A stretch of 64,000 nt of DNA. Origin: Methanococcus vannielii SB. Lineage in GTDB: Archaea; AGJL01; Methanococci; Methanococcales; Methanococcaceae. Below are positions 23,928 to 56,687 of the stretch, piece after piece. The notes beneath the pieces were generated by a model. The model worked only from the letters and a program-made list of their open reading frames with translations, ran no database searches and had not been told where the DNA came from. The stretch's first letter is position 1, and each line of letters starts with the position of its first letter. The stretch lies in contig NC_009634.1 of NCBI RefSeq assembly GCF_000017165.1, positions 1,130,249 to 1,194,248 on the forward strand, written 5' to 3'. The position numbers and the translations under genes are program-made.

Positions 23928-24103
23928 ATGGCTTTATGTAATCCATATTTAAAGAAGTATTATCTCCAATTTTTATTTTTAAAATTTAAACGACATTTTG
24001 TAACAATTATCAGAAATATTATTTTTTAGATTAGCTATATTAACAAGTTATGATTACATTCAAATAGGTAAGTAATTATATATGATTAAAATATATGTGA
24101 TGG

Positions 24104-24115
24104 TGTGGGCCCACA
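24104..24115. promoter_or_regulatory. GC-rich 12-bp palindrome in the fdh leader
   Basis: TGTGGGCCCACA is a perfect palindrome and the only GC-rich element in the leader. The flanks TGGT (24101-24104) and ACCA (24118-24121) could extend it into a bulged hairpin. It lies about 125 bases before the fdhA start. It is a regulatory site candidate and the only hairpin in the leader that might serve as a SECIS, though the archaeal GAA/A internal-loop pattern is not visible. Confidence 0.4.
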
Positions 24116-24181
24116 ATACCACAATAAAATAAGTGCTAGTTGATGCCTAACTCCTAGAAATTTTAAGATAGTTAATTAAAA

Positions 24182-24241: not shown

Positions 24242-26273
24242 ATGGCTGAATTTAAGGTTGTTCATACTATATGCCCCTACTGCGGAACCGGTTGCGGTAT
24301 TGACTTAGTAGTACGGGATGGGAAAGTAGTGGACACGCATCCATTCAAGAGACACCCTGTAAACGAGGGAAAAGTGTGTATAAAAGGAAACTACTGTCAT
24401 GAGTTTATTGATAGTGACGAAAGATTAAAAAAACCCCTTATAAAGAAAAATGGTCAGTTTGTGGAGTCTACGTGGGACGAAGCAATAGGTCTTATTTCGG
24501 AAAAATTAAAACAATATTCTTCTAATGAAGTGGCATTTTTTTCATGTGCAAGAGGCACAAATGAAGAAAACTATTCAGTACAGAAATTTGCAAGAACGGT
24601 GATGAAAACAAATAACGTGGACCACTGTGCAAGAATATGACACGCACCTACAGTTACAGGACTTGGAGAATGTTTCGGGTCAGGTGCAATGACAAATTCA
24701 ATCAATGATTTAGCAAAAGCAGATTTATTATTGATCTATGGTTCAAATACTTTTGAAGCACACCCTTTAATTGCAAGAAGTATTATAAGAGCCAAAGAAA
24801 ACGGTGCAAAAATAATAGTAATTGATCCAAGAACCACACACACTGCAAAAATGGCAGATTTACATTTAAAATTAATTCCTGGGTCAAACATTGATTTGAT
24901 AAATACAATTACAAATGTAATTATTCAAGAAGGCCTCATTGATGAAGAATTTATTAAAAATCGAACTGAAGGCTATACTGAATTAAAAGAAGTTCTTAAA
25001 AAGTATACTCCTAAAAAAACTGCTGAAATCTCTGGAATTCCTGAAGAACAGATAATTGAAGCTGCAAAAATGTATGGAACTGCAAAAAATGCGGCCATAA
25101 TGTACTGTTTAGGAGTTACCGAGTATACTTTTGGAGTAGATAACGTTAAATCCTGCTGTAATCTTGCAATGGTTACTGGAAATCTTGGGAGGCCTGGAAC
25201 TGGGGTAAATCCACTAAGGGGCCAAAATAATGTTCAAGGGGCCTGCGACATGGGTGCTCTCCCAAACGTATTCCCAGGATACCAGAAGGTAGAGGAAGCA
25301 TACGAAAAATTCCAAGAACTATGGGGAACAGCAGATTTGGATAGAAAAACAGGATTAACAAGTCCTGAAGTATTAAATAGTGCTGGAAAGCAAATAAAAT
25401 ACTTGCATATCGTTGGGGAAGACCCAATGGTTGCAGATGCAGATATAAATCATGTTGAAAAAGCTATAAAAAGTCTTGACTTTTTTGTAGTGCAAGATAT
25501 ATTCTTAACCGAAACAGCAAAGCTTGCGGATGTTGTCCTTCCTGCAGCATGTTGGGCTGAAAAAGATGGAACATTTACAAACTCAGAAAGAAGAGTTCAA
25601 AAGGTAAGAAAAGCAGTAGATGCACCCGGTGAAGCACTTCCAGACTGGCTTATTATTAAAAAACTCGCTGAAAAAAATGGGACATGGCGAAAAATTCAAC
25701 TTTGAAAATTCAGAAGATATATTTAGCGAAATGTCAAAAGCAATACCTCAATATGCAGGAATGTCATATGAACGGCTTGGAATTGATGGACTTCAATGGC
25801 CATGTAAAACCACAGACGACCCAGGTACTCCAATCCTACATCGGGAACGGTTTTTAAGGCCGAATGGATTGGGTAAATTTGTACCGGTTGAACATATTGA
25901 TCCTGCAGAAATGACAGACAAGGAGTATCCGCTTATACTCACAACGGGTAGAATAATATTCCATTACAACTCGGGAACAATGACTAGACGATGTGAAAGC
26001 ATAGTAAATGAAATAGATGAAAACTTTATCGAAATTAATACTGAAGATGCAAAAACCCTGAATATTAAAAATGGGGATACTGTTAAGGTTTCTTCAAGAC
26101 GAGGAACTGTAAATGCATTAGTAAGGGTAACGGAAAATATTATAAAAGGGGTAGTTTACATGTCTTTTCACTTTTTAGAGGAGGCAACAAATAAAGTCAC
26201 AAATTCAGCATACGACCCCGTATCAAAAACCGCAGAAGTTAAAATATGTGCCGTTAAAGTTGAAAAAATTTAA
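24242..26273 (+). CDS. fdhA: formate dehydrogenase alpha subunit, selenocysteine-type, with a frameshift
   Basis: Catalytic subunit of the F420-reducing formate dehydrogenase (molybdopterin enzyme). The N-terminus [14 protein letters not shown] ... [10 protein letters not shown] binds a [4Fe-4S] cluster. At codon 133 an in-frame TGA (24638-24640) stands in [16 protein letters not shown], the position of the active-site selenocysteine. Downstream are [33 protein letters not shown] and the C-terminal dinucleotide-binding domain. The reading frame breaks in a run of seven A at 25671-25677. Six A would give [13 protein letters not shown] and continue to the stop at 26273, for about 676 residues. 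As written, the protein stops at 25705. A true lesion, a sequence error or slippage are all possible. Confidence 0.93.
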
Positions 26274-26294: not shown

Positions 26295-27422
26295 ATGAAC
26301 TATTATTTAGTTCAATCAACGGATGAAGATATTTTAAAGTATGCGGAATGTGGAGGAGCAGTTACTGCAATCTTTAAATATCTTTTGGATAAAAAAATGG
26401 TTGATGGCGTATTAAGCTTGAAAAAAGGAGAAGATGTCTACGATGGAATTCCAAATCTAGTCATCAACCCAAAAGAACTAGTGGAAACATGCGGTTCGCT
26501 TCATTGCGCTCCAACAATGTTTGGAAAATTAATAAGTAAACACATGAAAGACTTAAATCTTGCAGTGGCCGTAAAACCTTGTGACGCAATGGCAATAAAA
26601 GAACTTGAAAAAAGACACCAGATTGACAAGGATAAGTTATACACTATCGGTTTAAATTGTGGCGGAACAATACCTCCTCAAACTGCGAGAAAAATGGTTG
26701 AATTATTTTATGGCGTAGACCCAATTGACGTAGTAAAAGAAGAAATTGACAAGGGAAAGTTTATTATTGAGTTAAAAGATGGAACTGAAAAATCCGTAAA
26801 AATGGATGAACTTGAAGAAAATGGATATGGCAGACGAAAAAACTGCCAAAGATGTGAACTAAAAGTTCCAAGAAATGCAGATATTGCATGTGGAAATTGG
26901 GGTTCTGAAAAAAGATGGACATTTGTAGAAATATGTTCTGAAAAAGGAAAAGAATTACTTAAAAATGCAGAAAAAGAAGGTTACGTGAATATAAAGTCAC
27001 CTTCTGAAAAGTCGCTAGAAATTCGTGGAAAAATTGAAAAATCCATGATAACTCTCGGTAAAAAATATAAAAAAGAACAATTGGATGAAAGTTACCCTAC
27101 AACTGATAAATGGAATGAATATTGGAGTCGCTGTATCAAGTGTTACAGCTGTAAGGATGTATGTCCAGTATGTTTTTGTAAAGAATGTGCTTTAACTGAA
27201 GACTATTTAGATAAAGGAACTATCCCTCCAAATCCCGTAATGTTCCAAGGAATTAGGCTTTCACACATGAGTTTTAGCTGTATAAATTGTGGTCAGTGTG
27301 AAGATGTATGTCCTGTTGAAATTCCTCTTTCCAGCATATATCATAGAGCTCAGCAAAAGCTTCAAAACGCTACCGGGTTTATTCCGGGAGTTGATGATTC
27401 AATGCCTTTTTTATATAAATAA
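26295..27422 (+). CDS. fdhB: formate dehydrogenase beta subunit (F420-reducing)
   Basis: Carries electrons from FdhA to coenzyme F420 and, in methanococci, to the heterodisulfide reductase complex. The 375 residues belong to the FrhB/FdhB flavoprotein family: CGGAVTAIFKYLL near the N-terminus, CGSLHCAPTMFGKL, VKPCDAMAIKEL and NADIACGNWGSEK. Near the C-terminus are two ferredoxin-type [4Fe-4S] motifs, CIKCYSCKDVCPVC and CINCGQCEDVCPVE. ATG follows AGGTGATAAA, 21 bases after fdhA. The gene is intact even though fdhA is frameshifted. Confidence 0.95.
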   Translation: MNYYLVQSTDEDILKYAECGGAVTAIFKYLLDKKMVDGVLSLKKGEDVYDGIPNLVINPKELVETCGSLHCAPTMFGKLISKHMKDLNLAVAVKPCDAMAIKELEKRHQIDKDKLYTIGLNCGGTIPPQTARKMVELFYGVDPIDVVKEEIDKGKFIIELKDGTEKSVKMDELEENGYGRRKNCQRCELKVPRNADIACGNWGSEKRWTFVEICSEKGKELLKNAEKEGYVNIKSPSEKSLEIRGKIEKSMITLGKKYKKEQLDESYPTTDKWNEYWSRCIKCYSCKDVCPVCFCKECALTEDYLDKGTIPPNPVMFQGIRLSHMSFSCINCGQCEDVCPVEIPLSSIYHRAQQKLQNATGFIPGVDDSMPFLYK

Positions 27423-37520: not shown

Positions 37521-39430
37521 ATGCAAACTGACGACAAATATATAATGCTTGAAAAATACTCTTCCCTTCAAAAGGAAGCACGAGATGACCCTGAAAAATT
37601 TTGGGGAGAACATGCAAAGTGTTTAGAATGGGAAAAAACTGGGATAAAGTCTTAGAATGGGATCCCCCATATGCAAAATGGTTTAAAGGGGGAATATTAA
37701 ATGCAAGCTACAACTGCGTTGATAGACATATTAAAGGAAACCGCAGAAACAAAGCAGCAATAATTTGTGAAAATGAAGATGGAACATGCGGAATTTTAAC
37801 CTATTATGAATTATATCGGCAGGTAAATAAGTTTGCAAACGTTTTAGAGAACTTAGGCGTTGAAAAAGGTGACGTTGTAACAATTTATATGCCAATGATG
37901 ACTGAAGCAATTATTTCAATGCTTGCATGTTCTAGAATTGGTGCAATCCACAACGTTGTATTTTCTGGATTTTCATCTGAAGCACTTTCTGACAGGATTA
38001 ATGATTCAAAGTCAAAGGTAATTGTTACTTCAAACATTTTATACCGGCGTGGAAAAGAAGTAAATTTGAAAAAAATAGTTGATAAAGCTATATTTAATTG
38101 TAATTCAATAAAACACGTGGTTTATGTTCAAAGGGGTAATGAGGAGTTAAAATTAGATTCAGGACGTGATTACTACTGGCACGAACTTATGGAGGGTGCT
38201 AAAAGCTACGTTGAACCAGTTCCCGTCGATTCAAACCATCCACTTTTTATATTATATACCAGTGGTACAACTGGAAGTCCAAAAGGTGTAGTTCATTCTA
38301 CGGGCGGTTATTTAACCTATGCATCAAAAACAATGGACTGGACATGGGGATTAAATGAAATGGACGTGTTTTGGTGTACTGCTGACATAGGTTGGATTAC
38401 CGGACACTCTTATGTGGTATATGGGCCGCTTTCCCTTGGGGCCACAATTGTATTATATGAGGGAGCAATTGATTATCCTGAGCCAGATCGACTTTGGAAG
38501 ACTGTTGAAAGGCATGGAGTTACAATATTATATACTGCACCAACTGCAATAAGAATGCTAATGATGTATGGTGAAAAATGGGTAAATAAAAATGATTTAT
38601 CAACATTAAGACTTTTAGGGAGTGTCGGGGAGCCAATAAATCCTAGGGCATGGAAATGGTATTACAAAACAGTCGGAAATGAAAAATGTCCAATATGCGA
38701 TTGCTACTGGCAAACTGAAACCGGAGGGCACATGATATATCCCCCAATAGGGATACAATCAGTTCCATTAAAACCGGGTTCTGCAACGTTTCCAGGAATT
38801 GGAATTGATTTAGATGTCGTTGATAACGATGGAAATCCGGTATCTCCAGATACTAAAGGAAATTTGATTATAAAAAGCCCTTGGCCAGGAATGTTAATGG
38901 GCCTTTGGAATAACGATTCAAGATACCGAAATGCTTACTGGGAAAGATTTAAAAACAAATTTTCAACTTCAGATTATGCTATAAAAGATAAAGATGGATA
39001 TATTTGGGTACTTGGACGTGCTGATGAAGTTTTAAATGTTGCAGGACATCGGATTGGTACAGCAGAACTTGAACACGAATTAGTTTCAAATAAAATGGTT
39101 GCAGAAGCAGCAGTAATTGGAAAACCTGACGATATAAAAGGTGAAGTCCCAGTTGCATTTATAATATTAAATGAAAATTACCGGGATTTACCTTCAGATG
39201 AATTGAAATCTACCCTTATAAACCATGTTCGAGATACCGTAGGCCCGGTTGGAGCTCCTTCAATGATTTTCTTTGTAAATAAGCTTCCAAAAACAAGAAG
39301 TGGAAAAATTATGAGAAGAATATTGAAAAAATTAATAATGGGGGAAGAACTTGGGGATGTTACGACTTTAGAGGATAATACAAGTTTAGAAGAAGTTAAA
39401 AAAGAACTTGAAGACTTTAAATATGATTAA
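37521..39430 (+). pseudogene. acsA: acetyl-CoA synthetase (AMP-forming), frameshifted near the 5' end
   Basis: Activates acetate to acetyl-CoA for assimilation. Translation from the ATG at 37521 gives a normal N-terminus (FWGEHAKCLEWEK) but runs into a stop at 37653-37655. The rest (NWDKVLEWDPPYAKWF onward) is in the next frame. The break falls in a run of six A at 37633-37638; seven A would join the parts into about 636 residues, the usual length. Downstream the enzyme is complete: FILYTSGTTGSPKGVVHS, CYWQTETGG, GRADEVLNVAGHRIGTAE and the acetylatable lysine in KTRSGKIMRR. Either a genuine disruption, slippage-tolerant gene, or base-calling error. Confidence 0.85.
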
Positions 39431-56226: not shown

Positions 56227-56291
56227 AACTTACTCTTCCTCGTAATCTATGATAAACATGATATCTTTTGCACATTTACGCATTAATTCGC

Positions 56292-56687
56292 CTATTTTTT
56301 TTTCTTATTCTCATCTAAATTTACAAATTCCTTTATTGCAGTATGTAGTGCATTTTTAAGTTCAAGTCCGCCATTAAAATGAAAATGAAAAAGAGCATCG
56401 GATTTTTTTAATGCATATTCAACTTTTTCACTGTTTTCGTATAGGAATTTTGAGCCGTTTTCAGTAAGTCGGTAAACTTTTTTACCTCTTACATCTGTTT
56501 TTTCAATTTCAATTAATCCTTTAGTTTTTAAAGAAGATAATATCGGGTAAATCATGCTTGCACTCATGGAAATCCCTAATTTATCCCCTAATTTTGAAAT
56601 TAAAGAGTATCCATGAAGGGGCTCTTTTTCTAAATCGTGCATGATTAAAATTTTTACAAGTTCTTTAATTTTTTTCATTTTTGACAT
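56292..56687 (-). CDS. PadR family transcriptional regulator
   Basis: A 131-residue winged-helix regulator. The helix-turn-helix is KILIMHDLEKEPLHGYSLISKL and ISMSASMIYPILSSLKTKGLIEIE, followed by the wing VRGKKVYRLTENGSKFL. The C-terminal helix (KNALHTAIKEFVNL) is the dimer part. It is the first gene of the efflux cassette, with a 20-bp palindrome 10 bases upstream that suggests autoregulation. Start ATG follows GTGTGATATA. Confidence 0.9.
   Translation of the reverse strand: MSKMKKIKELVKILIMHDLEKEPLHGYSLISKLGDKLGISMSASMIYPILSSLKTKGLIEIEKTDVRGKKVYRLTENGSKFLYENSEKVEYALKKSDALFHFHFNGGLELKNALHTAIKEFVNLDENKKKK

What the first reader, a model, noticed from the sequence alone, without database searches (positions are those of the whole stretch)
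25671..25677. Frameshift in a poly-A run disrupts the selenocysteine formate dehydrogenase gene
fdhA is intact up to codon 477 or so, then stops at 25705. Removing one A from the A7 run restores [13 protein letters not shown] and the remaining 190 codons, in frame to a normal stop. fdhB just downstream is intact, so the loss is recent, an error, or tolerated. Poly-A runs are slippage-prone for polymerases, so transcripts of the right length could still arise. Methanococci often have a second fdhA, which would relax selection on this copy.
Basis: partly seen in the sequence, partly recalled or inferred. Interest (0 to 1): 0.7.

Follow-up and report, generated by a model that had tools for sequence, protein, structure and literature searches.

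The report
One-base break in dispensable formate dehydrogenase
The second of two formate dehydrogenase genes of a methane-making archaeon carries one extra base that cuts its protein short, either a very recent loss or a reading error in the deposited genome, while the same gene also carries, inside its coding sequence, a hairpin that looks like the signal for inserting selenocysteine, a place where archaea are not known to keep it.

Summary
In detail: A7 at 25671-25677 breaks a selenocysteine fdhA; the frame ends at TGA 25703-25705 after 487 residues, and the remaining 198 codons lie open in another frame. The three nearest orthologues have A6. The gene is fdhA2; intact fdhA1B1 sits elsewhere in this genome near fdhC, and M. 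maripaludis fdhA2 deletions are reported to grow nearly normally on formate. Both pieces still look constrained, so the break is very recent or a base-call error; I cannot separate them (about 50 to 42). Two more genes in this window carry one-base breaks, a weak lean towards error. A7 runs are common here and the site is not conserved, so rescue by slippage or programmed shifting is unlikely. By itself the break is ordinary. Following the gene led to something less ordinary: 7 of 7 Methanococcus fdhA2 copies (three lineages) carry an archaeal-SECIS-like GAA/A hairpin inside the reading frame, here 105 bases after the UGA, while 10 of 13 other fdhA copies examined have theirs upstream of the gene. 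The paper passages I saw place archaeal SECIS elements in untranslated regions. Function is not tested, and a model trained on fdhA1 elements scores the hairpin only weakly.

The parts
24242..25705 (+). fdhA2, 5' reading frame: Fe4S4 domain and PF00384, 487 residues with Sec, ending at the premature TGA
   Evidence: TIGR01591 690 bits for the first 476 residues, cut-off 666
24638..24640 (+). in-frame TGA read as selenocysteine (codon 133)
   Evidence: 20 of the 21 matches have one TGA inside (the other is the distant L034)
24746..24784 (+). SECIS-like hairpin inside the reading frame: 9-bp lower stem, GAA/A bulge (GAA at 24755-24757), 3-bp upper stem
   Evidence: function inferred
25671..25677 (+). 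A7 run; A6 in the three nearest orthologues
25703..25705 (+). premature TGA stop
25677..26273 (+). 3' reading frame of fdhA2 (198 codons and stop) with PF01568, the molybdopterin dinucleotide binding domain
26295..27422 (+). fdhB2, intact, F420-reducing type beta subunit

Best explanation
The sequenced stock of this Methanococcus (M. vannielii SB, recalled from the genome length) carries a very recent inactivating one-base expansion, A6 to A7, in fdhA2, the second selenocysteine formate dehydrogenase of the F420 type. Replication slippage at the run is the likely cause (inferred). Translation ends nine codons past the shift, so the last third of FdhA2, with the molybdopterin dinucleotide binding domain, is not made and Fdh2 is lost; the cell lives on intact Fdh1. 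Shown: the extra base against relatives, the truncation in the sequence, the intact fdhA1B1 near fdhC, the absence of other lesions. Inferred: that the base is really in the DNA, and that no active Fdh2 is made.
For: A6 in the three nearest orthologues; 13 of 13 other Methanococcus fdhA copies open. Gene order shared with G001 and G003 (threonine synthase, a 171-residue gene, deoxyhypusine synthase, fdhA2B2, hypF), and a separate intact copy near a formate transporter, a carbonic anhydrase-like gene and a histidine kinase gene. In M. maripaludis fdhA2 mutants grow nearly as wild type on formate and fdhA1 mutants poorly (PMC5733999 passage; PMC10025317 passages). In M. smegmatis 28 of 73 resequenced interrupted genes were errors, so 45 were not (PMC1852416 abstract and passages).
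Against: Nothing in the sequence separates a real base from a miscall. Both pieces keep low pN (0.065-0.072 and 0.096-0.105 against G001-G003). Private changes at columns invariant in the other copies are 2 of 202 and 2 of 64, against 5-7 of 206-208 and 1-3 of 64-65 in intact fdhA2 copies (whose near sisters were left out) and 1 of 201 and 0 of 62 in this genome's intact fdhA1, so no decay is seen. Three one-base breaks sit in this window (53 orthologues) against one, or five if the rows I dropped are counted, in 518 orthologues sampled elsewhere.
Confidence: 0.5

Rival explanations
1. The extra A is a base-call or consensus error in the deposited genome; fdhA2 is intact in the organism.
For: No other lesion in the gene; fdhB2 and the SECIS-like hairpin are preserved. 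In a sample of 571 orthologues 8 were flagged in this genome and I judged 4 to be clean single-base breaks (fdhA2, acs, agcS, a padR-like gene), about 7 per Mb of coding sequence compared; errors found by resequencing M. smegmatis ran at 4 per Mb. Three of these 4 lie in this window: 3 of 53 orthologues against 1 of 518, Fisher p = 0.0028; with fdhA2 left out because it picked the window, 2 of 52 against 1 of 518, p = 0.023.
Against: The clustering is post hoc and depends on my judgement: the 4 flagged genes I dropped all lie outside the window, and counting them gives 3 of 53 against 5 of 518, p = 0.030, or 2 of 52 against 5 of 518, p = 0.13. The padR-like case rests on a 63%-identical homologue. 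The reverse screen flagged 4 of 571 in G003, 3 of which I would keep by the same eye, so the rate here is not unusual. The four genes look dispensable (general knowledge, not tested), which random errors need not be.
Confidence: 0.42
2. The gene is still expressed: transcript slippage at A7 or ribosomal shifting yields some full-length FdhA2.
For: The 3' frame stays open and constrained; a run of A is a plausible slip site.
Against: The run is A6 in the nearest orthologues, so there is no conserved recoding site. 40 A7 runs occur in this window. The review passages seen give nine A or T for efficient bacterial slippage; I saw no archaeal slippage data in them.
Confidence: 0.05
3. The break leaves a working two-chain enzyme: the 5' product and a separately started 3' product (ATG at 25677) assemble, as FwdB and FwdD do in formylmethanofuran dehydrogenase.
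For: The break falls at the end of PF00384 (profile position 351 of 353) and PF01568 lies whole in the 3' frame; the pieces match FwdB and FwdD models weakly, far under the cut-offs (TIGR03129, NF042908).
Against: I see no Shine-Dalgarno-like sequence before that ATG (by eye); the other 19 fdhA copies compared are single frames.
Confidence: 0.03

Closest known systems
fdhA2 (Fdh2, selenocysteine formate dehydrogenase) of Methanococcus maripaludis
   Same: 86-87% identity over the first 476 residues to the copies of G001-G003, same gene order in G001 and G003, same Sec codon, fdhB2 directly downstream; that G001-G003 are M. maripaludis-like is recalled from genome size
   Different: frame broken by one base here; open in the six other Methanococcus genomes held
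Single-indel interrupted coding sequences of finished genomes (M. smegmatis study, PMC1852416, abstract and passages)
   Same: one-base indel in an otherwise conserved gene; cannot be told from a miscall without resequencing
   Different: no resequencing available here
Archaeal SECIS element of fdhA1 (5'-UTR, shown functional in M. maripaludis, PMC11881835, passages)
   Same: GAA/A internal loop, 8-10 bp lower stem, two G-C pairs above the bulge
   Different: the fdhA2 hairpin lies inside the reading frame 105 nt after the UGA, has a loop of 11 nt, G-C rather than C-G first above the bulge, and U-A and U-G pairs below it
Bacterial SECIS (Rfam SECIS_3)
   Same: a position inside the reading frame after the UGA
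   Different: bacterial SECIS is adjacent to the UGA; the Rfam match there (24635-24693) scores 24.8 bits against a gathering score of 63

Membership tests
FdhA (TIGR01591) | sequence match over the whole model | tested here: met
   5' piece 690 bits, positions 1-475 of 672; 3' piece positions 476-672, in another frame
FdhA (TIGR01591) | one continuous reading frame | tested here: not met
fdhA2 orthologue | gene order shared with the second fdhAB set of G001 and G003, apart from the set near a formate transporter | tested here: met
Programmed frameshift or slippage site | slip site conserved among orthologues | tested here: not met
   A6 in G001, G002, G003
Decaying pseudogene | further lesions or relaxed constraint | tested here: not met
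   one contrary sign, pN ratio of 3' to 5' piece 1.47-1.58 against G001-G003, 0.94-1.11 in the intact pairs computed
Archaeal SECIS (candidate hairpin 24746-24784) | GAA opposed by A in an internal loop | tested here: met
   7 of 7 fdhA2 copies
Archaeal SECIS (candidate hairpin 24746-24784) | basal helix of about 10 bp | tested here: met
   8-10 bp in 7 of 7
Archaeal SECIS (candidate hairpin 24746-24784) | G/C pairs directly below the bulge | tested here: not met
   U-A and U-G there; fdhA1 of the same genome also has U-A and A-U there
Archaeal SECIS (candidate hairpin 24746-24784) | position in an untranslated region | tested here: not met
   inside the reading frame
Archaeal SECIS (candidate hairpin 24746-24784) | scores with a model trained on fdhA1 SECIS only | tested here: inconclusive
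   no match with default filters nor in the own-genome search; with filters off it is the best match of the stretch, 10.7 bits E 0.17 in 2.5 kb and 14.9 bits E 0.018 in L016
Archaeal SECIS (candidate hairpin 24746-24784) | directs Sec insertion | not testable with these tools
   needs a reporter

The most novel reading that the evidence does not exclude
fdhA2 messages of the genus Methanococcus decode their UGA with a SECIS element inside the reading frame, about 105 nt downstream of the Sec codon, kept by synonymous-site selection together with two clade-specific amino-acid changes (Q to A, R to S) that complete the hairpin. It would be an archaeal-type SECIS in a coding region, and it persists even in this broken copy.
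Probability: 0.7. Interest if true: 0.6.

Novelty: new variant of a known kind. Interest (0 to 1): 0.4.

Why it matters
The break itself is a routine resequencing target and would rate as ordinary: it decides whether this species has one working formate dehydrogenase or two. The intra-frame hairpin, for which the novelty grade is given, matters more. Where fdhA2 keeps its SECIS is not stated in the passages I saw, and a recent study had to ask how a 5' leader SECIS of fdhA1 could act, noting base pairing that would bring it 43 nt behind the UGA (PMC11881835, passage). A gene that simply carries the element behind the UGA inside the frame gives a direct test of how archaeal SECIS position works, and of how a ribosome passes through its own recoding signal.

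Tried and rejected
Relaxed selection on the broken copy: not supported; pN is low in both pieces, private changes are no more than in intact fdhA2 copies, and G000 is the longer branch in intact fdhA1 too; the raised 3' pN against G001-G003 is the one contrary sign. The FdhB part gave no comparison. Programmed shift: rejected, site not conserved. Read-through of the premature UGA as Sec: the frame meets TAG seven codons later (read by eye), so it mends nothing. Bacterial-type SECIS at the UGA: Rfam match far under its gathering score. The 5' leader palindrome of fdhA2 (24102-24123) as SECIS: lacks GAA/A and folds no better than shuffles (z 0.20). SECIS by the fdhA1-trained model: missed with default filters and in the own-genome search. 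Covariation in the hairpin: only one pair with changes on both sides, 359 of 500 shuffles reach that, so the case rests on position, motif and codon constraint. The family accession was a wrong guess (QrcC); nothing was drawn from it except genome handles. The 53 loci were not used. Adding 400 kb of each genome left the screen at 390 orthologues; one search was needed to reach 571.

Full report
What is there. The A7 run is at 25671-25677. The frame that starts at ATG 24242, with TGA 24638-24640 as selenocysteine, gives 476 residues that match formate dehydrogenase alpha (TIGR01591 690 bits, cut-off 666), two more that fit relatives, then nine foreign residues and TGA at 25703-25705: 487 residues in all. 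The rest of the protein, 198 codons with the PF01568 domain, lies open in another frame up to TAA 26271-26273. fdhB follows at 26295-27422 and is open. The window lies in a 1,720,048-base single-contig genome; by that length it is M. vannielii SB (recalled, not from a call).

Which copy. All 7 Methanococcus genomes held carry two fdhA copies, each with a TGA inside, and 13 of the 14 copies have open frames of 675 residues or more. The window copy shares gene order with one set in G001 and G003: threonine synthase, a 171-residue gene, deoxyhypusine synthase, fdhAB, hypF (names). The other copy of this genome, C1:664203-665615, is intact and lies near a formate transporter, a carbonic anhydrase-like gene and a histidine kinase gene, much like the arrangement described for fdhC-fdhA1B1 (PMC10025317, passages). 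So the broken gene is fdhA2. In M. maripaludis fdhA1 mutants grow poorly on formate and fdhA2 mutants nearly as wild type (PMC5733999, introduction passage). A loss here would be tolerable. In the Protein Data Bank the best match is a 674-residue F420 formate dehydrogenase (9t1s, aligned to its residue 474), so the truncated product would lack about 190 residues.

Real or error. The three nearest orthologues read A6 at the same place. The broken gene shows little sign of decay. pN against G001-G003 is 0.065-0.072 in the 5' piece and 0.096-0.105 in the 3' piece, with dS 0.93-0.99 and 1.5-1.9. Private changes at columns invariant in the other copies are 2 of 202 and 2 of 64; intact fdhA2 copies, with their near sisters left out, have 5-7 of 206-208 and 1-3 of 64-65; the intact fdhA1 of this genome has 1 of 201 and 0 of 62. 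Against this, the 3' to 5' ratio of pN is 1.47-1.58 against G001-G003, where the five intact pairs computed give 0.94-1.11; against G005 it is 0.99, and dS is raised in the 3' piece as well, so I do not read it as relaxation. The G000 branch is longer than the G001-G003 branches in fdhA2 and also in intact fdhA1. The break is therefore younger than these data can resolve, or not real.

To see how common such breaks are I compared 884 kb of this genome with 1.6 Mb of G003 (by length M. maripaludis C5, recalled). Of 571 orthologues, 8 were flagged in G000. Four look like clean single-base breaks in conserved genes: fdhA2, an acetate-CoA ligase (window about 37630), an amino acid carrier (C1 about 851,900) and a padR-like regulator at a nine-base run (T9 on the + strand, 56295-56303). 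The other four have stops inside an aligned piece or low identity and I dropped them; all four lie outside the window. The reverse screen flagged 4 of 571 in G003, of which I would keep 3 by the same eye (names; run). Three of my four lie in this window: 3 of 53 orthologues against 1 of 518, Fisher p = 0.0028. Leaving out fdhA2, which picked the window, gives 2 of 52 against 1 of 518, p = 0.023; counting the dropped rows gives 3 of 53 against 5 of 518, p = 0.030, or 2 of 52 against 5 of 518, p = 0.13. This is at most a hint of a weak stretch of consensus. For scale, resequencing of 73 interrupted genes of M. smegmatis found 28 errors, 4 per Mb (PMC1852416, abstract and passages). I put real recent loss at 0.50 and error at 0.42.

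Rescue. A7 runs are ordinary here (40 in the window), the site is not conserved, and the review passages I saw give nine A or T for efficient bacterial slippage (PMC5009743). A two-chain enzyme is conceivable because the break falls at the end of PF00384, where in formylmethanofuran dehydrogenase FwdB and FwdD are separate proteins (recalled), but nothing else supports it.

The hairpin inside the gene. To ask whether the broken gene keeps its selenocysteine signal I first scanned 14 Methanococcus fdhA loci loosely for a GAA/A hairpin, which besides the elements below gave one hit at +738 in G000 fdhA2 and one at -378 in G004 fdhA2. I then scanned -1500 to about +2900 of 20 fdhA loci with one rule: GAA opposed by A, at least 7 pairs below, a G-C pair first above. 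It gave one match in each of 15 loci and none in 5. In 8 of the 13 non-fdhA2 loci it lies at -77 to -124, the place of the 5' leader SECIS of fdhA1, shown functional in M. maripaludis (PMC11881835, passages). A model built from those 8 (9 of 12 pairs with changes on both sides) finds one in two more loci: at -89 to -55 in G021 and, further off, at -443 to -407 in G020, so 10 of 13. The other three are G004-G006, in line with the report that M. voltae lacks it (that G004-G006 are M. voltae-like is my inference). In 7 of 7 fdhA2 loci the single match lies at +510 or +513, inside the reading frame, 105 nt behind the UGA here (24746-24784). The seven stand for three lineages, since G001-G003 and G004-G006 are near-identical there. 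Folding finds the same element in 7 of 7 fdhA2 loci and no other GAA/A hairpin in them; by that stricter test only 4 of 13 of the others show theirs.

Is it chance? In 4.97 million strand-bases of both genomes a strict pattern gave 9 hits, four of which are the fdhA1 and fdhA2 elements of the two genomes. With the protein fixed and codons drawn from each gene's own usage, a hairpin with at least 8 lower and 3 upper pairs arises in 0.08-0.84% of draws per gene. The segment is among the most codon-conserved of the 5' piece of fdhA2: 6 of 363 windows reach its mean, three of them covering it. The two codons that form the top pair differ between lineages and keep the pair, A-U in G000 and G004-G006, U-A in G001-G003. 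fdhA2 has A and S where the 13 other copies have Q and R, and both changes help to complete the stem. Against this: only one pair covaries, which shuffles often match; the fdhA1-trained model misses it with default filters and in the own-genome search, where its best match is the fdhA1 leader (E 3.2e-7), and ranks it first only with filters off over short stretches (10.7 bits, E 0.17; 14.9 bits, E 0.018); the pairs just below the bulge are U-A and U-G. Function is not tested.

What is in print. Passages of PMC11881835, PMC9622424, PMC11227280, PMC13188914 and PMC2933860 place archaeal SECIS elements in untranslated regions; PMC11881835 and PMC2933860 give fdhA (fdhA1) in the 5' leader as the exception. 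The word fdhA2 does not occur in the main text of PMC11881835. Searches for SECIS with fdhA2 (3 papers), with archaea, fdhA and coding region (5 papers) and with Methanococcus, open reading frame and kink-turn (4 papers) showed no report of an intra-frame archaeal element in titles, abstract starts or the passages I saw; I did not open PMC9312934, PMC1088965, PMC9499178, PMC6895022 or PMC7176365, and supplementary tables were not readable. For the break, a search for vannielii, fdhA and frameshift found 0 papers, and one for Methanococcus vannielii, genome sequence and pseudogene listed 4, none on this gene by title.

Verdict. The break is confirmed, ordinary in kind and unresolved between recent loss and error. 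The intra-frame SECIS-like hairpin of fdhA2 is the part worth a specialist's time.

Noticed in passing
window 37521-39430: Acetate-CoA ligase gene with a single-base break near 37630 (first 40 residues in one frame, about 610 at 85% identity in another); one match in this genome at E 1e-100, without stops in the 5 other genomes that hold it, absent from G006 at that threshold.
   Followed up: partly
window 56233-56687, minus strand: PadR-like regulator whose frame shifts at a run of nine (T9 at 56295-56303 on the + strand, one of two such runs in the window); the homologue in G003 continues about 23 residues in another frame.
   Followed up: partly
G000 C1 about 851,900: Amino acid carrier (agcS) with a one-base break about 30 residues before its end.
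   Followed up: no
G000 C1:1,055,809-1,077,430 (L113 and neighbours): Perfect tandem array, four copies of a 5,405-bp unit (16,217 bases identical at that lag) with a TFB-like gene, a T2SSE-type ATPase gene and two T2SSF-type genes. Real amplification or assembly effect unknown.
   Followed up: partly
whole genome G000: A selenium-independent formate dehydrogenase of M. vannielii was described in 1981 (title only, in a reference list), yet the five PF00384 matches are two Sec-type fdhA and three that look by eye like formylmethanofuran dehydrogenase B subunits; no Cys-type fdhA was among them.
   Followed up: partly
G004-G006 fdhA1 (L096, L098, L100): No GAA/A, CAA/A or TAA/A hairpin by the rule from -2500 to +5000; one AAA/A match, in G005 at -1658. 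How their UGA is decoded is open.
   Followed up: partly
window 24102-24123: GC-rich palindrome in the fdhA2 leader, with a like one in G001-G003, after an A/T-rich TATA-like stretch (by eye); folds no better than shuffles as RNA, perhaps an operator.
   Followed up: no
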